45,626 nt of DNA from Candidatus Kuenenia stuttgartensis (GTDB lineage: Bacteria; Planctomycetota; Phycisphaerae; Phycisphaerales; SM1A02). Positions within the stretch are counted from its first letter, which is position 1, and each line of letters opens with the position of its first letter. The DNA lies in assembly GCA_945902075.1 (NCBI GenBank), contig CAMDMA010000028.1, forward strand, positions 1 to 45,626, given 5' to 3'. Position numbers and translations under genes: made by a program. The notes under the pieces were generated by a model, which was not told where the DNA came from, ran no database searches, and was given only the letters and a program-made list of their open reading frames with translations. This document shows positions 20,487 to 27,334 of this stretch, piece by piece.

Positions 20487-21165
20487 AGCTGCCTCGAAAT
20501 GCACGGCCTCACTGCGTGAATCTCATCACACTCCATCGCGGACTAAAAACATCGAGGCTGTCAACAGGTATTCGGCGTGAGCGGAAGTAAAACATTTTGC
20601 AAGTCGACAACGCTCAACACACTCGTTCGCGATTTATCCACAGGAACATCGTCACAAGGCAATCAGACTGCTTTGAAACGTGCAACCCGCGCTTCTGCCT
20701 ACATTTCCGTTTGAATACACCCGCTTGTCTGGCATGAAGCGGTTGCGATCGACGATGGCCGCGTTACAGTGCGCCCCGCTCGCAGGGACGTGAGCCTCCG
20801 CGATGTTTCTTCTCGCGCGGAGTCGAGTCGGGAAAGTGCTTGCCGAGTTCTTCGCTGCAGCGCCTCCCTTCACTCGGGTTGTCATTTCACTCCTCCCACC
20901 TCTCCGCTCTTGAATGCGTGCGATCAGGTCGACGAAGTCGACTGCGACCGCCAACGCGTGATCACGCTGCGCGAGCCTCGCCGAAACGAACCTCGGCTCG
21001 ACTCCGCCTCTCGTGCCACGCCTTGGCCCGCTGTCTCCTTGCCAGACCTGCCCGCCACGAATCGAACTCGCAACACTCGACCGCGCGTCTCTCCATCAAC
21101 GCCAAGTCGACCACGCACGATTCGCGCAGGCAAGTTTCAATCCAAACTCGCGTCCCGATCCCGCG
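20487..21165. other. 679-bp non-coding stretch upstream of dnaA; possible origin region
   Basis: No credible gene lies here. The part from about 20540 to 20640 is clearly poorer in G+C than its surroundings (for example GACTAAAAACATCG and GTAAAACATTTTGC). A perfect DnaA box TTATCCACA occupies 20634-20642. I find no second exact box on either strand, and dnaN does not flank dnaA, so calling this oriC is only a possibility. The box could instead serve dnaA autoregulation. The remaining part (20700-21165) is GC-rich with no evident structure and probably holds the dnaA leader. Confidence 0.4.
20634..20642 (+). promoter_or_regulatory. DnaA box (perfect consensus)
   Basis: The sequence is TTATCCACA, an exact match to the bacterial DnaA-box consensus, 524 bp before the dnaA start and next to an A+T-richer stretch. 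Confidence 0.65.
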
Positions 21166-22770
21166 ATGAATCCAGACCTCGCCCACCCTCCCGCGCTCTC
21201 CGAAGCCCAATCCGTGGCACAGCCCATGGCACAGCCCGCGGCCACCCCGCTTTCGCGGACCGCACGTGCCGCCGCGTCCGCCGCCGCGACAGCCACCTTT
21301 CGCGAAGCCCTCGCCGCCGAACTCGGTGCCCACCGCTTCGGACTTTGGTTCGAACATGGAACGAAGGCTGAAGCGACCGACGGGACCATCGCGATCTCGG
21401 CGCCGAATGCCTATGTCGCAGACTGGATCGGACGCAACTTTCGCGATGCGATGCAGCGCGCCGCAATCATCGCGCTTGGGGCAGAGGCCACAATCTCCAT
21501 TACAACTGCGGCGAACAGCACGGAAACACACTCGAATAGCACCGAAAAAGCGCAGCTTCACACCTCCTTCACCAATCCGCGCGGGGCTCCCCTCCGGGAC
21601 GGCACCAACAACGGGCGTGGCGTGATAGACGGTGCGGTGGATGGAGCGACCGATGGCGCGAATGAATCGCGACGACGATTTGCGAGCGGGCAGCGCACGC
21701 CTCGGTCGGCAGCCCTCCGTCGCCTCGAGGACTTCATCGTCGGTGATTCGAACCGCCTTGCCTTTGCCGCCAGCCAGCAGGTTGGCGAGGGCTCTGCCGA
21801 CGCGCCACCGATTCTGTTTCTTCACGGCGAGTGCGGAGTTGGTAAGACCCACCTGATCCAAGGCCTGTGCCGCCGCCGATCGGAGCGTGCGCCGAAGCAG
21901 ATTATTCGGTACGTCACGGCCGAACAGTTCACCAACGAGTACATCGCCGCTGTGCGTGATGGATCGCTTGATCAATTTCGAAAGCGCCTTCGGCGACTCG
22001 ATCTGCTCGCGATCGACGACGTCCACTTCCTCGCGAACAAAACCGCTACGCAGGCGGAGTTCCTCCACACGATCGACGCCATCGATCTCTCCGGCGCCCG
22101 TGTCGCGCTGGTCTCTGACGAGCATCCACGTCACATCCGACGCTTCAGCCAGTCACTTGTGAGTCGCTTCCTATCGGGGATGGTGGTCAAGGTCGAGCGC
22201 CCTGATCGGGGAACCCGTTCCGAACTCGTCCGTCGGCTTGCCTCAGAGCGCGGACTCGATTTGACAACCGCTGCCGAAGATGCGGTCGCGGGTCGATGTG
22301 CTGGCTCGATTCGAGAAATCGAAGGTGCGATCACCCGACTCGGCGCGTTGGTTGAACTTGATGGCGTCCGCGGACAGATCGGTCCGGGCACCGTGGAGCG
22401 GCTCCTCGGACACGACGGTCAAACCAACACCGGTGCCGCCCCGATTCGGCTTGCCGCGATTGTCGAAGCCGTCTGTGACCGTATGCGGGTGAACCGCGAG
22501 GACCTGCTTGGGAGCGGGCGCCATGCTCGAACCGTCGTCGCCCGCGGCGTGGTCGCGCACCTCGCGCGAGAGTTGACCACGCACAGTTACCCAGAGATTG
22601 CCCGCGCACTGGGCCGAGACACCCATTCCACCGTGCACACCGCCGCGAAACGCCTGAAGGGGCTGCTTGACGCGGACGCTCGGATCGCAGTTGGGGGCGA
22701 AGCCGTCCGTGAAGTCGTCGACCAACTCCGCCACGACCTCGCACGCGGTGGTCGGGGTCGCTCGGTGTAA
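21166..22770 (+). CDS. dnaA: Chromosomal replication initiator DnaA (divergent)
   Basis: All four DnaA domains are visible in 534 residues. Domain I spans ~43-105 (FGLWFEHGTKAEATDGTIAI), domain II is a variable linker to ~180, and domain III is an AAA+ ATPase with FIVGDSNRLAFAA, Walker A G221-ECGVGKTH and Walker B LLAIDDVHFL, then ALVSDEHPRHIRRF and SRFLSGMVVKVERPD. Domain IV has a DNA-binding helix-turn-helix with ARGVVAHLARELTTHSYPEI and GRDTHSTVHTA. The last motif differs from the near-universal GGRDHSTVLHA by replacing GG-RDH with G-RDTH, so the base-contacting loop is altered. The start ATG at 21166 is supported by loss of homology upstream. Downstream is a HEAT-repeat gene rather than dnaN. 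Confidence 0.9.
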   Translation: MNPDLAHPPALSEAQSVAQPMAQPAATPLSRTARAAASAAATATFREALAAELGAHRFGLWFEHGTKAEATDGTIAISAPNAYVADWIGRNFRDAMQRAAIIALGAEATISITTAANSTETHSNSTEKAQLHTSFTNPRGAPLRDGTNNGRGVIDGAVDGATDGANESRRRFASGQRTPRSAALRRLEDFIVGDSNRLAFAASQQVGEGSADAPPILFLHGECGVGKTHLIQGLCRRRSERAPKQIIRYVTAEQFTNEYIAAVRDGSLDQFRKRLRRLDLLAIDDVHFLANKTATQAEFLHTIDAIDLSGARVALVSDEHPRHIRRFSQSLVSRFLSGMVVKVERPDRGTRSELVRRLASERGLDLTTAAEDAVAGRCAGSIREIEGAITRLGALVELDGVRGQIGPGTVERLLGHDGQTNTGAAPIRLAAIVEAVCDRMRVNREDLLGSGRHARTVVARGVVAHLARELTTHSYPEIARALGRDTHSTVHTAAKRLKGLLDADARIAVGGEAVREVVDQLRHDLARGGRGRSV

Positions 22771-22911
22771 CCGGACAGTTCTGCGTGTCCGAGGCGGCTC
22801 CCTCGCCGACCTGACAAGCCCGACGGCTCCGAGCGTTCGTACCGACGAATGCGGAGCGAACCCCTCGTCATTCCGCACTTCCGTCCATCCTGCATGGGTT
22901 ACACTCGATCC

Positions 22912-24501
22912 ATGCCCTGCGCATTTCGCGTTCGTGTTCCGCGCCTTGCGCCGCTCGCCATCCTCGCAGGAGCATTGTGCTGCGTCTCGACGCTTTCCGC
23001 GCAGTACGGCCCTGTCGATCCATTTGAATCCTCGGTGCGCGCGCTCAAAGAAGGCATCGCAGCCAGAGCGGACGGAGAACAACATGCTGCGATGGTCGCG
23101 CTTCGCGAACTCCGCGACCCCGCGCTGCGCCCGCTGCTTGAGCGACTTTTGAAGAGTGACGACTGGTCGCTTCGTGTCGACAGCGTGCTTGGCCTTGCTG
23201 AACTTGACCCCGCAGGAAAGGTTGACGTCGCACTCGTCGAGAGCCTGCCCGGTGAAGGCGATCGCGAGACCTCGATCAACGCAGTGGTCGCACTTGAACT
23301 CCTTGACTCCGATCGCGTGGCAGCGATGCTTGCGTGGGACGATGTTCCTGCGGCCCAGCGCATCCTGCTCGCTTGCGAACAGCGCCGACTTGGTGGCACG
23401 CCGGACATTGCCGGAGTGCTTCGACTCGCGGATTCAAAGACCCCCGAAATCGCGGCACTTGCGGCGGCACTGCTCATCGAGATTGGCCCTCCCGCGTTCG
23501 GCGCGCCTGAAGCGGCCGCCCTCGCCGAGCGCACGCGCACGACCATCGCTTCACTTCCGCCGCGGAGCCGCTCGGCGATCGTCGCGCAGGTTGCCGATGC
23601 ATGTTCGATCAGTCGTCTGAAGGGCGCGGCCCCGTTTGTCGTTTCACTTCTCGCGCTCCCCGACATCGGTTCCGACGCACGCATGCGTGCCCTCGGAGCG
23701 CTCCTTGTCCTTTCGCCCGAAGCAGCGTTTCCCGTCCTTGCTGCAGCAATCGACGCGGACCGCTCGCAAACCGGACTCATGCGACACGCTTCGATTTTGC
23801 TCGCAAGCGGTGTACGCGCGCCGAAGTCTGAGTGGGATCGCCTTCGCAATGGCGATGCACTCATCGAGGCACTCGCAGACGCTGGAACCGCGATTGGTGA
23901 GAGCCGTGACGACGATGCCTACGCTCGCATCCTTGCGCTGAAGCACCGTGTTGCACTTCGTGCAGCGCTCGAAGGCGCGCGGCGACTCGGGTCAAGTTCC
24001 GATCGCGCGCTTGGTATCGCGTGTGCGAAGTATCTCGTCGCCGAACGCCGATCAGCGGGCGCACTCGCCGAAGGATTAACGCGAGCGATGGCTCGACTCG
24101 CCGTCGTTGCGCCCGAAGAATTGCGACCGATCCTCGAGGCGGTGACTGATGACCGCGCGATTCAAGAGGCCGTGCTACTCGCGCTTGCGTCTGCGGGAAG
24201 TCTTGAGGCTTCGTCGGTAGCGAAATCTGCAACCGGCAAGTCGTCGCGCATTGGCGAAGCGATGATTGCGGTACTCAATGCGCGCTTTGCTGAAAAGCTT
24301 GCGCAATCGGAACTCGATCAACTGGCGACCGTCGCAGGTGGCGGCGCGGGAGTTCCACCTGCCGTGCGTACGCAGGCCGCCTGGCTTTGGCTCAGGCACG
24401 CAAAGCGAACGGAGCCTGCGATTGACGCACTCCTCGCCGGAAACAGTCCGGCCACCCCAGCATCCAATGCAACGACCGCGCCTAAGGAGGCCGCACAGTG
24501 A
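22912..24501 (+). CDS. Secreted HEAT-repeat protein
   Basis: This 529-residue product begins with a signal peptide (MPCAFRVRVPRLAPLAILAG, cleavage near TLSAQ) from the ATG at 22912; an ATG at 22894 is also in frame. The mature protein is a long alpha-helical array of HEAT-like units such as RELRDPALRPLLERLLKSDD and SLRVDSVLGLAELDP. It has no catalytic motif, and such solenoids usually serve as binding scaffolds. The last codons overlap the start of the next gene (GTGA), with the downstream Shine-Dalgarno AAGGAGG lying inside this gene. Expression of the two proteins is therefore very likely coupled. The binding partner is unknown. Confidence 0.8.
   Translation: MPCAFRVRVPRLAPLAILAGALCCVSTLSAQYGPVDPFESSVRALKEGIAARADGEQHAAMVALRELRDPALRPLLERLLKSDDWSLRVDSVLGLAELDPAGKVDVALVESLPGEGDRETSINAVVALELLDSDRVAAMLAWDDVPAAQRILLACEQRRLGGTPDIAGVLRLADSKTPEIAALAAALLIEIGPPAFGAPEAAALAERTRTTIASLPPRSRSAIVAQVADACSISRLKGAAPFVVSLLALPDIGSDARMRALGALLVLSPEAAFPVLAAAIDADRSQTGLMRHASILLASGVRAPKSEWDRLRNGDALIEALADAGTAIGESRDDDAYARILALKHRVALRAALEGARRLGSSSDRALGIACAKYLVAERRSAGALAEGLTRAMARLAVVAPEELRPILEAVTDDRAIQEAVLLALASAGSLEASSVAKSATGKSSRIGEAMIAVLNARFAEKLAQSELDQLATVAGGGAGVPPAVRTQAAWLWLRHAKRTEPAIDALLAGNSPATPASNATTAPKEAAQ
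24485..24501 (+). promoter_or_regulatory. Strong ribosome binding site and GTGA start/stop overlap
   Basis: AAGGAGG (24485-24491) precedes the GTG start at 24498 by 6 bases. The GTG overlaps the TGA stop of the HEAT gene at 24499-24501. Exact anti-SD matches are rare in this window, so this marks a deliberately coupled start. Confidence 0.85.
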
Positions 24502-25649
24502 GCGAACCAATTCGACTTGGGATGCACGATCCGAATCGTGGCGAATGGAGCGAGATTCAGCAGACGCTGCGTGCGTCGCATGGTGAGCTTCACAAGATTG
24601 AGGAGCGCGTCGAGCAACTCGTTGCAGACATCGTTGCTCGGCCATTTGGTGTCGCGTTTTCCTCAACCGGCGCAGCCATCGAGGCGACGCTCGAAGCACT
24701 CGGCGCGACAAGTGGGACGGAGATTGTGGTGCCAGCACTCGCCCCCGCAGTGCTTGCGTCCGCTGCGTCACGGGTCGGCACGCGCGCGCTCTACGCCGAT
24801 GTCGATCCAAAGTCGATGACCCTCCGCGCGCACCACGCTTCCGCACGCGTGACGACCGCGACCCGCGCCATCGTCGGAGTGGCCCTCCACGGCCAGCCGG
24901 CTGGCCTCGATGAACTGGCCGCCGTCGCATCCCGCAACGAGATCCCGCTGCTTGAGATCATTGCCGGCGGAATGGGCGGACGCATCGGGCGCGATCCCGT
25001 TGGCCGCTTTGGTCGCGTGGCGGTGATCTCACTTGGCGAACGCGACTCCACCATCGGTTCGGGTGGTGCTGTCTGTGTCACCAACGACGACAGTCTTGCG
25101 AGCACACTTCGACTTCTCCGAAACGGCGGCGCGCTCGACCCACGCAGTGACTGGGAGAAGCTCGGCGGAATTCGACGCATCGACCGCATCGGCCTCGATG
25201 GCCGAATGAACGCCATGCAAGCCGCGCTCGCAACGGTGCGACTCTCTCGCTTTGAGCAAACTTGCAACGAACTCGAGGAGATTTTCCACGGGTACCTTCG
25301 ACGCCTCGCGTTGCATCCGGAGCTCGTCCTACCCGCCCCTTGCGCTGATGGAACAGTTCGTTGGTCACACTTTGCCGTGCGGCTTTCGGAGCGTTACTCT
25401 CGCGACGACCGCGACTCGATCATCCAAGGCATGCTCCGACATGACATCGCCGCGACGAGCGTTGCCCACGTTCTTCCGCACGAGCCCGCCTTTGCCTGTG
25501 GTCACAAACTCGGTGATTTTCCAGTCGCTGAGCGCGCATCGGATCGCCTGATCGCACTGCCATTCTCAACAGACATCGGCGATCGCGAAATCGACCTCAT
25601 CTGCCAAACGCTTCAGGTCATGATTGAGCGGCAATCGATTCTCCGCTGA
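24498..25649 (+). CDS. DegT/DnrJ/EryC1-fold protein lacking the PLP-binding residues
   Basis: The 383-residue product has the full outline of a DegT/DnrJ/EryC1/StrS sugar aminotransferase: AFSSTGAAIEATLEALG (S-G-T-x-A region), ADVDPKSMTL, a VALHGQPAGLDELAAVA strand, LRNGGALD and GLDGRMNAMQAALATVRLS near the dimer interface. Key cofactor residues are gone. The family E-D-x-A-Q/H segment that contacts the PLP ring reads E153-I-I-A-G, so the Asp is Ile154. The Schiff-base Lys of S-F-x-x-x-K is replaced by Arg182 in SLGERDSTIGSGGA. Enzymes of the ColD type also lack the Lys but keep the Asp. The protein is therefore probably not a PLP transaminase. It is coupled to the secreted HEAT gene; the two could act together, though it has no signal peptide itself. 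Confidence 0.82.
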   Translation: MSEPIRLGMHDPNRGEWSEIQQTLRASHGELHKIEERVEQLVADIVARPFGVAFSSTGAAIEATLEALGATSGTEIVVPALAPAVLASAASRVGTRALYADVDPKSMTLRAHHASARVTTATRAIVGVALHGQPAGLDELAAVASRNEIPLLEIIAGGMGGRIGRDPVGRFGRVAVISLGERDSTIGSGGAVCVTNDDSLASTLRLLRNGGALDPRSDWEKLGGIRRIDRIGLDGRMNAMQAALATVRLSRFEQTCNELEEIFHGYLRRLALHPELVLPAPCADGTVRWSHFAVRLSERYSRDDRDSIIQGMLRHDIAATSVAHVLPHEPAFACGHKLGDFPVAERASDRLIALPFSTDIGDREIDLICQTLQVMIERQSILR

Positions 25650-25657
25650 GCGTGCGA

Positions 25658-27220
25658 TCACTCCCACTCGATCGTGGCCGGTGGCTTCGACGAAATGTCG
25701 TAGACCACGCGATTGACGCCCTTCACCTCATTGATGATGCGGTTCGAGATTGTGGCAAGGACGTCATACGGAATGCGCGACCAATCTGCGGACATGAAAT
25801 CCTGTGTATCGACTGATCGAATCGCAACCACAGAGTCGTAGGTTCGGCCGTCACCCATGACACCGACCGACTTCACCGGAAGCAGAACGGCAAAAACTTG
25901 GCTCGTCGATCGATAGAGATTTGCAGAAACAATCTCTTCGAGCAGAATTCGATCACACTCGCGTAGCACATCAAGTTTCTCAACCGTGATGTCGCCGATC
26001 AGCCGAACGGCAAGGCCGGGGCCTGGAAACGGATGACGCCACACCATTTGTTGCGGCAAGCCAAGCACTTCACCAAGCGCGCGGACCTCGTCTTTGAAGA
26101 GGAGCCTCATCGGCTCAATCAACTCAAACCCGAGTTGCTCGGGAAGCCCGCCAACATTGTGATGCAGTTTGATGTTCGCACTCGTACCCGCGTGTCCATG
26201 CCCGGACTCGATGACGTCGGGATAGAGCGTCCCCTGCGCCAAGAACTTGACCTCGCCGGGAATCGACTTCGCAGACTCCTTAAACACTTCGATGAAGCGA
26301 TGTCCGATCCGACGGCGCTTTTCCTGCGGCTCGACGATGCCTTCGAGATCACCGAGAAACTCGCGACTTGCATCGACGACACGAAGGTCAATATCGAAGT
26401 GGTCGCGAAACGTCGAGTCGACAAGGTCGCGCTCATTCTTCCGGAGTAGACCGTTGTCGACAAAGATGCAGACAAGTTGCCGACCGATCGCCTTCGCAAG
26501 CAACGCCGCGACGACTGAGCTATCGACTCCGCCTGACAGGCCGCAGATCACCTTCGCCGTCCCGACGCGCGCGCGAATTCGAGCGCATTCCGCATCGACG
26601 AAATCCGCCATCTTCCAGGAACCTGCGCAGCCGCAAGCCTTGAAGAGAAAGTTGGCCAACATGTCGCCACCTTGGGGGGTGTGCGTGACCTCCGGATGAA
26701 ACTGCACACCGTAGAAGCGGCGCGCGCTGTCGCGAACCGCTGCGCATGGACAGGTCGCGGTGCTTGCGATCACCTCGAAACCAGCGGGCGTCTTCGTCAC
26801 CTGGTCGCCGTGGCTCATCCACACGGTGGCGTGCGCATCGACGCCGGCGAAAAGTTCGCTTCCCTCTCGGACATCGATCTTCGCTCGTCCGTATTCGCGA
26901 TGCGCCGCCGACTGCACGGTTCCGCCGAGCAAATGGCTCATCAGTTGCATTCCGTAGCAAATACCGAAGACCGGAATGCCCAGCGCAAAGAGGGCTGGAT
27001 CACAGGTCGGCGCACCCGGCTCGAACACACTCGCCGGACCACCTGAAAGGATGATGCCTTTGGGCGCGATGCGCCGGACCTCCTCCACGCCGATATTCGG
27101 CGAGACGAGCAGGCTAAAGACGCCCGACTCGCGAACGCGACGCGCGATCAGTTGCGCCGTCTGGCTGCCAAAGTCGAGGATGAGGACCGTTTCGGTACCG
27201 GGCGGTGGAATCTCAATCAT
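25658..27220 (-). CDS. guaA: GMP synthase (glutamine-hydrolysing)
   Basis: This 520-residue cytosolic enzyme converts XMP to GMP using ATP and glutamine. The N-terminal class I glutamine amidotransferase carries the nucleophile motif [15 protein letters not shown] and the His-Glu pair in QFHPEVTH. The ATP-pyrophosphatase domain has the P-loop [18 protein letters not shown]. The C-terminal dimerisation domain ends in the conserved KPPATIEWE. Length is normal. The ATG at 27220 precedes [19 protein letters not shown]. It is convergent with the DegT-like gene, 8 bp apart. Confidence 0.97.
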
Positions 27221-27334
27221 GGGGAGGGGGCGAAATGTAACACCCGCGGCGGCCGCTGAGGCTGTCCTGGTCGCGATGGAGGCAACGCAGGGCAGCGGTA
27301 CGCGCAATTGCCGCCGCTTTTCCCAATCTGGCGG

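What the first reader, a model, noticed from the sequence alone, without database searches (positions are those of the whole stretch)
24498..25649. DegT-fold protein that has lost all PLP-contact residues, translationally coupled to a secreted HEAT protein
The overall DegT/DnrJ/EryC1 pattern is intact, but Asp (E-D-x-A-Q) is Ile154, the Gln/His positions are Gly157/Met159 and the Schiff-base Lys is Arg182 (SLGERDSTIG). Known Lys-less relatives (ColD) keep the Asp and still use PLP. Losing all of them suggests a pseudo-enzyme or a new activity. The GTGA overlap and the strong AAGGAGG inside the HEAT gene imply a functional pair.
Basis: partly seen in the sequence, partly recalled or inferred. 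Interest (0 to 1): 0.78.

Follow-up and report, generated by a model that had tools for sequence, protein, structure and literature searches.

The report
Aminotransferase-fold protein without its catalytic site
A gene whose relatives look like vitamin-B6-dependent sugar-modifying enzymes has, in one bacterial family, lost the residues that hold the vitamin while still being kept and protected by selection in some twenty genera, so the protein probably matters for something other than the original chemistry.

Summary
Window 24498-25649 encodes a 383-aa DegT/DnrJ/EryC1 protein (PF01041, 1.3e-52) whose PLP site is gone: Asp to Ile154, Glu/Gln to Gly157, aromatic Phe to Pro83, phosphate loop G-T to T-G, neighbour-subunit Asn to Asp234. 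The Schiff-base Lys aligns without gaps to Asp183 (not Arg182); it is Asp/Glu in all 15 rows of the genus. This is not decay of one copy. All 45 orthologues sampled outside the window's family keep Lys, 44 with Asp. Within the family 29 of 106 sampled rows keep Lys; 77 (20 genera) lost it, at least twice by a GuaA+DnaA tree. Lys-less copies are under purifying selection (dN/dS 0.03-0.18, as in Lys-bearing ones) and have a HEAT-like gene directly upstream in 77 of 77. No Lys-bearing orthologue was seen in the 20 Lys-less genomes checked. Best reading: an old DegT-fold pseudo-enzyme kept for a non-PLP role, perhaps ligand binding or scaffolding in envelope-sugar metabolism; the role itself is inferred. 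The HEAT partner looks exported and the DegT protein cytoplasmic, so a direct complex is doubtful. I found no description in the papers searched.

The parts
24498..25649 (+). DegT-fold protein without PLP-site residues (383 aa)
   Evidence: PF01041 1.3e-52; motif table; tree; fold search of a low-confidence model (pLDDT 57) gives perosamine synthase and WbpE among its best hits, TM about 0.6
24957..24959 (+). Ile154, at the position of the Asp that binds the PLP ring nitrogen
   Evidence: Asp in 73 of 74 Lys-bearing orthologues; I/V/F in 15 of 15 rows of the genus
25044..25046 (+).
   Evidence: gap-free alignment within the orthogroup; D or E in 15 of 15 rows of the genus
24666..24671 (+). Thr57-Gly58, in place of the G-T phosphate loop
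   Evidence: G57 98%, T58 97% in Lys-bearing orthologues
24744..24746 (+). Pro83, in place of the aromatic residue that stacks on the PLP ring
   Evidence: F 100% in Lys-bearing orthologues; P in 15 of 15 rows of the genus; the stacking role is recalled, not from a call
25197..25199 (+). Asp234, in place of the Asn that reaches the PLP phosphate of the other subunit
   Evidence: N 98% in Lys-bearing rows; D in 62 of 77 Lys-less rows; the role of the Asn is recalled
22849..24501 (+). HEAT-like protein, probably exported; likely start ATG 22912
   Evidence: PF13646 E=0.0015, below cut-off; relative upstream in 77 of 77 Lys-less rows
24484..24490 (+). AAGGAGG ribosome-binding site inside the HEAT gene
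   Evidence: GGAG within 24 nt upstream of the start in 11 of 15 genus rows (my count)
24498..24501 (+). GTGA stop/start overlap
   Evidence: 4-bp overlap in 14 of 15 rows of the genus
21013..22770 (+). DnaA paralogue upstream of the pair (neighbour in much of the order)
   Evidence: TIGR00362 308.7 bits against a cut-off of 343.9; synteny

Best explanation
It is a DegT-fold pseudo-enzyme. SHOWN: its orthologues elsewhere in the class keep the residues of PLP-type sugar-nucleotide aminotransferases, nearest to PseC, ArnB and perosamine synthase. In this family the Schiff-base Lys was lost at least twice, and most remaining PLP contacts changed as well in the window's genus. The gene stayed at the same locus (DnaA paralogue, HEAT-like gene, DegT) under strong purifying selection. 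INFERRED: the protein no longer binds PLP covalently or transaminates. It keeps the DegT fold, presumably as a dimer, and acts without PLP chemistry in the cytoplasm, most likely as a ligand-binding (sensor) or scaffold protein for nucleotide-sugar and envelope metabolism, made in step with an exported HEAT-like protein by translational coupling. The second role would have existed before catalysis was lost, since the HEAT linkage is found with Lys-bearing copies too.
For: Lys absent in 77 of 106 sampled family rows (20 genera), present in all 45 sampled rows from other families. Mostly single-copy: 158 of 171 family genomes (own one included) match at E<=1e-30, all but two of these with one match. 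In 20 Lys-less genomes searched with a Lys-bearing profile, every other listed DegT protein scores 6e-52 to 4e-95, against 1e-171 to 5e-198 for four Lys-bearing family orthologues and 1e-135 for g59. The further DegT proteins whose DNA I held (12 distinct ones, 11 from Lys-less genomes) all keep Asp and Lys and fall outside the orthogroup in a tree. dN/dS 0.03-0.18 in 17 Lys-less pairs, 0.04-0.19 in 6 Lys-bearing pairs. 30 columns, the PLP contacts among them, are 95-98% conserved in Lys-bearing groups but only about as conserved as the rest of the protein within Lys-less clades; 31 other columns, including W289, R295, R305, R350 and P355, stay conserved in both. HEAT-like gene upstream in 77 of 77 Lys-less rows and DnaA in 40 of 42 with enough upstream sequence. 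No invariant lysine in the genus.
Against: No biochemical evidence. The model has mean pLDDT 57, so the pocket cannot be inspected. 19 of 77 Lys-less rows keep the Asp and could still hold PMP non-covalently. Asp234 is a new near-fixed residue (62 of 77), which hints at a new ligand rather than an empty site. In three clades (g17, g57, g43/56) the changed columns are slightly MORE conserved than average. The gene is not universal: 13 of 171 family genomes, 6 of the 104 best ones, have no match at E<=1e-30. The co-loss idea failed. The HEAT-like protein is probably in another compartment. The sensor/scaffold role rests on no direct data.
Confidence: 0.72

Rival explanations
1. A new PLP-independent enzyme: the DegT pocket was re-used for another reaction on a nucleotide sugar (for example lyase, epimerase or hydrolase chemistry), with Asp234 and, in the genus, Asp/Glu183 as new catalytic residues.
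For: Asp234 in 62 of 77 Lys-less rows; D/E183 in 15 of 15 rows of the genus; invariant H131-G132, L-E-x-x-x-G-G, R-F-G-R and G-S-x-G-A in the genus; changed columns slightly above average conservation in g17, g57 and g43/56.
Against: The residue at 183 differs between Lys-less clades (R, S, T, A, G, D/E), and in the other six clades tabulated the changed columns are at or below average conservation (.74 against .77 in the genus).
Confidence: 0.15
2. PLP or PMP is still used without a Schiff-base Lys, as in ColD.
For: 19 of 77 Lys-less rows (g19, g43, g56, g58, g61) keep the Asp, and g19 keeps F83 in part of its rows.
Against: 58 of 77 rows, with all 15 of the window's genus, lack the Asp too. 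The genus also lacks the phosphate loop, the aromatic stack and the Asn. ColD keeps the Asp and has His for Lys (recalled); no Lys-less row has His there.
Confidence: 0.06
3. An inactive partner subunit that heterodimerises with an active DegT paralogue, as in serine palmitoyltransferase LCB1 or GcvP alpha (both recalled).
For: The window's genome has three further DegT proteins with Lys and Asp, and DegT enzymes are dimers with shared sites (recalled).
Against: The Asn that such a subunit would lend to its partner's phosphate site is Asp in 62 of 77 Lys-less rows. The paralogues are only 26-29% identical and lie on other contigs.
Confidence: 0.07
4. A decaying gene or a sequencing/assembly artefact.
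Against: No in-frame stop in any family match listed; 20 genera share the loss; dN/dS 0.03-0.18.
Confidence: 0.01

Closest known systems
DegT/DnrJ/EryC1/StrS sugar aminotransferases (PF01041); nearest equivalogs PseC (TIGR03588) and ArnB (NF008658); nearest chains perosamine synthase 3bn1, WbpE 3nyu, ArnB 8sng/1mdo
   Same: Whole-length profile match and fold-search match. The one Lys-bearing orthologue searched against solved chains (L041) matches ArnB at 5e-71 and 2e-69.
   Different: The window protein lacks Lys, Asp, phosphate loop, aromatic stack and Asn. Neither it nor the four Lys-bearing orthologues scanned (L041, L055, L032, L150) reach any equivalog cut-off.
ColD (GDP-4-keto-6-deoxymannose 3-dehydratase, 2gms/3gr9)
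   Same: DegT fold without the Lys; ColD chains are among the hits.
   Different: ColD keeps the Asp and uses PMP with His in place of Lys (recalled); here Asp is lost too and Lys is D/E in the genus.
PLP-fold subunits without Lys: LCB1 of serine palmitoyltransferase, GcvP alpha (both recalled)
   Same: Fold-type-I protein kept after loss of its own PLP site.
   Different: No linked active partner seen here, and the residue that would be lent to the partner's site is changed.

Membership tests
DegT/DnrJ/EryC1 aminotransferase, as a sequence and fold family | match to PF01041 above the curated cut-off over the full length | tested here: met
   179.6 bits against 19.8, profile 9-359 of 360; Foldseek 3bn1 E 2.2e-17, TM 0.60, on a pLDDT 57 model
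DegT/DnrJ/EryC1 aminotransferase, as an enzyme | Schiff-base Lys | tested here: not met
   Asp183; Lys in all 45 sampled rows outside the family, in 0 of 15 rows of the genus
DegT/DnrJ/EryC1 aminotransferase, as an enzyme | Asp to the pyridine nitrogen | tested here: not met
   Ile154; 73 of 74 Lys-bearing rows have Asp
DegT/DnrJ/EryC1 aminotransferase, as an enzyme | phosphate loop G-T and Asn from the neighbour subunit | tested here: not met
   T57-G58, D234; roles recalled
DegT/DnrJ/EryC1 aminotransferase, as an enzyme | transaminase activity, PLP absorbance | not testable with these tools
   needs purified protein
ColD-like Lys-less PMP enzyme | His at the Lys position, Asp kept | tested here: not met
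   Asp183 and Ile154; the ColD definition is recalled
Pseudo-enzyme (retained non-catalytic homologue) | catalytic residues lost in a lineage while the gene is retained under purifying selection | tested here: met
   77 rows, 20 genera; dN/dS 0.03-0.18 in 17 pairs
Pseudo-enzyme (retained non-catalytic homologue) | absence of catalytic activity | not testable with these tools
   needs purified protein
Inactive subunit completing a partner's PLP site (LCB1-like) | keeps the residues lent across the dimer | tested here: not met
   N234 to D in the window protein and in 62 of 77 Lys-less rows
HEAT-DegT functional pair | conserved gene adjacency | tested here: met
   77 of 77 Lys-less, 24 of 29 Lys-bearing rows of the family, 17 of 25 in other families of the order, 0 of 20 outside the order
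HEAT-DegT functional pair | physical or genetic interaction | not testable with these tools
   needs pull-down or knock-out

The most novel reading that the evidence does not exclude
The PLP pocket has been turned to a new, PLP-free use on at least two occasions: a DegT-fold enzyme or nucleotide-sugar sensor with new pocket residues (Asp234; Asp/Glu183 in this genus, Arg183 in a sister group). It would work in step with an exported HEAT-like protein across the cell envelope, and would be a PLP-free branch of the DegT family that I found nowhere described.
Probability: 0.25. Interest if true: 0.8.

Novelty: new variant of a known kind. Interest (0 to 1): 0.62.

Why it matters
Here one mostly single-copy gene offers a series: Lys-bearing orthologues in the rest of the class, at least two Lys losses, and graded loss of the other PLP contacts in some 20 genera at one fixed locus. 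That makes it testable what a PLP-fold protein does when the cofactor is dropped, and whether a second, non-catalytic role came first. It also warns annotation pipelines: a PF01041 match here would be named an aminotransferase.

Tried and rejected
Isolated decay: rejected, since the loss is shared and under purifying selection. A hidden Lys through a better alignment: rejected; no lysine column is invariant in the genus, best K105 at 80%. A Lys-bearing second copy doing the job: not seen in the 20 Lys-less genomes searched. In some of them (for example G000, G031, G161, G170, G149, G099) a paralogue scores a little better than the syntenic gene with the Lys-bearing profile, so score alone does not settle it. 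A tree of the 151 rows plus 15 further DegT entries from held loci keeps all 151 on one side (support 1.0), joined only by L170 and L177, which are the syntenic Lys-less genes of G130 and G071; the other 13 entries (12 distinct proteins) keep Asp and Lys. Most of the lower-ranking paralogues were not fetched and not placed. A paralogue may still have taken over the old activity. Co-loss with the nucleotide-sugar dehydrogenase seen beside the gene outside the order: rejected, 145 of 171 family genomes, the window's own among them, have a match at E<=1e-60, with hits in both Lys-bearing and Lys-less genera. One single loss: the DegT gene tree needs 2 changes (quick tree, SH-aLRT only, key branch 89); the GuaA+DnaA tree of 29 genomes also needs 2, with one clade for the 19 Lys-less genomes rejected (AU p 0.0047). 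If Lys cannot be regained that tree reads as about four losses (the clade of 16 genera, g19, g57, g58), but only 7 of its 26 inner branches are well supported. The two trees disagree on g5, g8 and g59. Direct HEAT-DegT complex: doubtful, 70 of 98 long HEAT ORFs have a hydrophobic stretch near the N-terminus, 0 of 151 DegT rows do (a crude hydropathy count, not a predictor). Single-sequence AlphaFold failed (pLDDT 36).

Rows dropped before counts: of 164 loci held when the tree set was made, L034-L038, L071 and L072 (second copies of places already held), L039 and L040 (distant paralogues), L002-L004 (own paralogues) and L142 (273-aa fragment, Lys-less, g16) were left out, giving 151 rows. Family rows are 106 taken from the 158 matching family genomes, chosen by genus; rows from outside the order are 20, one or two per family. 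Of the genus, 15 of 16 genomes gave a row; G010 had no match. The 30 columns were picked for being rare in Lys-less rows taken together, so only their conservation within clades is informative; g3 and g50 (3 rows) are not in that per-clade table.
Full report
OBSERVATION. The ORF at 24498-25649 (+) is open, 383 aa, GTG start. It overlaps the upstream ORF 22849-24501 by GTGA, with AAGGAGG 7 nt before the start. It matches PF01041 at 1.3e-52 over profile positions 9-359 of 360; its nearest solved chains are perosamine synthase (4e-27) and WbpE (3e-25). An AlphaFold model from 8 sequences is weak (pLDDT 56.9, pTM 0.58); its best Foldseek hit is perosamine synthase (3bn1 2.2e-17, TM 0.60, rmsd 7.5), with WbpE, Fic25 and ArnB further down the list.

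ACTIVE SITE. In the orthologue alignment the motif E-D-x-C-E-G-L-G-G is E-I-I-A-G-G-M-G-G, and F-Y-P-N-K-Q-I-T-T-G-E-G-G is L-G-E-R-D-S-T-I-G-S-G-G-A at the same columns, without gaps. The window protein also lacks the G-T phosphate loop (T57-G58), the stacking Phe (Pro83), the Asn lent to the other subunit (Asp234) and Tyr322-Phe323. The roles of these residues are recalled from DegT structures. No lysine column is invariant in the 15 rows of the genus.

RELATIVES. 59 of 61 genomes from genus to order, own one included, have a match at E<=1e-30, all but two of these exactly one. In the family 158 of 171, again all but two with one; among genomes at least 90% complete 98 of 104, so a few seem to lack it. 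In the class sample 115 of 120 match at E<=1e-60 and, by my hand count of the table, 96 at E<=1e-100. In the phylum sample 29 of 78 match at E<=1e-85; the best outside the class, 2e-116 to 3e-114, come close to the weaker in-class ones, so whether the orthologue ends at the class is open. Of 151 orthologues aligned, 74 have Lys (73 of them also Asp; L062 has Val for Asp) and 77 do not. All 45 rows from outside the family and 29 of 106 family rows have Lys. The 77 Lys-less rows span 20 genera: Asp/Glu in the window's genus; Arg with Asn or His for Asp in a large sister group and g3, Arg with Asp kept in g61; Ser, Thr, Ala or Gly elsewhere. 58 of the 77 have lost the Asp too. The one Lys-bearing orthologue searched against solved chains, L041, matches ArnB at 5e-71 and 2e-69; the four scanned stay under all NCBIfam equivalog cut-offs, PseC being nearest.

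HOW OFTEN LOST. The DegT tree without the motif columns needs two changes of the Lys label. A GuaA+DnaA tree of 29 genomes puts 16 Lys-less genera in one clade (98/99). It puts g19, g57 and g58 in another with the Lys-bearing genera g5 and g8 (94/88; g58 with g5 and g8 99/95). One clade for all 19 Lys-less genomes is rejected (AU p 0.0047). So at least two losses, about four if Lys is never regained. The two trees disagree on g5, g8 and g59, so the number is open.

SELECTION. Nei-Gojobori dN/dS is 0.03-0.18 in 17 Lys-less pairs and 0.04-0.19 in 6 Lys-bearing pairs; the HEAT-like gene has 0.06-0.38 in the 19 pairs where both copies were long enough (dS is near saturation in several pairs, and three pairs share rows). 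31 columns are conserved in both sets; 30 columns, the PLP contacts among them, are conserved only with Lys. The latter are 95-98% conserved in the three Lys-bearing groups but near each Lys-less clade's own average.74 against .77 in the genus.62 against .69 in the Arg group, slightly above average in g17, g57 and g43/56. Asp234 is the clearest new constraint: 62 of 77.

NEIGHBOURHOOD. The order DnaA-HEAT-DegT is common in the window's order: HEAT-like gene directly upstream in 77 of 77 Lys-less rows, 24 of 29 Lys-bearing family rows, 17 of 25 rows of other families of the order, 0 of 20 outside it. Two rows that first gave a wrong short ORF (L131, L056) do have the full gene, and L083 shows only its end at a contig edge. 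DnaA is found in 40 of 42 Lys-less and 14 of 15 Lys-bearing family rows with at least 2.3 kb upstream, in 0 of 20 outside the order. Outside the order I read 12 neighbour ORFs from 12 of the 20 loci: three are nucleotide-sugar dehydrogenases and two MsbA-like ABC transporters; others are unrelated (ClpX- and PurF-like among them) or spurious (only one dehydrogenase confirmed by profile, the rest named by eye). That leans towards an envelope-sugar role for the ancestor, no more. The 4-bp overlap occurs in 28 of 77 Lys-less rows and 2 of 41 Lys-bearing rows with HEAT. The HEAT-like protein starts like an exported protein and the DegT protein does not (and by eye).

NO REPLACEMENT COPY SEEN. In 20 Lys-less genomes searched with a profile of Lys-bearing orthologues, the other listed DegT proteins score 6e-52 to 4e-95, against 1e-171 to 5e-198 for four Lys-bearing family orthologues and 1e-135 for g59. 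The 12 distinct paralogues placed in a tree fall outside the orthogroup and keep Asp and Lys. Such paralogues could still have taken over the old activity.

MECHANISM. Shown: loss of the PLP site with retention. Inferred: the protein folds as a DegT dimer, does not carry PLP covalently, and serves by binding or scaffolding. I rate a ligand-binding or scaffold role in envelope-sugar metabolism most likely because the ancestor was of that kind, the scaffold columns stay fixed, and the gene stays linked to a probably exported protein. A new PLP-free reaction is the main rival; Asp234 and Asp/Glu183 speak for it, the variety at position 183 against it.

KNOWN OR NEW. As a sequence it is a DegT-family member; as an enzyme it fails the defining features tested. 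ColD-like PMP use is not met (no Asp, no His). I found no paper on Lys-less DegT clades in the searches listed under Tried and rejected. I call it a new variant of a known kind: a pseudo-enzyme branch of a well-known enzyme family.

Noticed in passing
window 21013-22770; L253:515-2005: The DnaA beside the pair scores 308.7 bits, under the TIGR00362 cut-off of 343.9, while the same genome has a second DnaA at 471.9 bits. 25 of 30 genomes checked have two DnaA matches at E<=1e-40. The linked one may be a second, divergent DnaA kept across the order.
   Followed up: partly
L135, L136, L137 (genus g59): These three keep Lys and Asp but have no HEAT-like gene: DnaA lies directly upstream of DegT. 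All 77 Lys-less rows have HEAT, so Lys may be dispensable only where HEAT is present; 41 Lys-bearing rows have HEAT as well.
   Followed up: partly
L062 (family f5): A Lys-bearing orthologue outside the family with Val for the Asp (EVACEAFG): a possible first step of a similar loss elsewhere.
   Followed up: no
window 25658-27307 (-): GuaA lies convergent, 8 bp from the DegT stop, and its relative lies downstream in most genus loci and in some other Lys-less loci such as L019, L026, L030 and L059.
   Followed up: no
L044 and L070 (genome G055): One genome has two Lys-bearing orthologues, both with a DnaA upstream; contamination is possible (3% listed).
   Followed up: no
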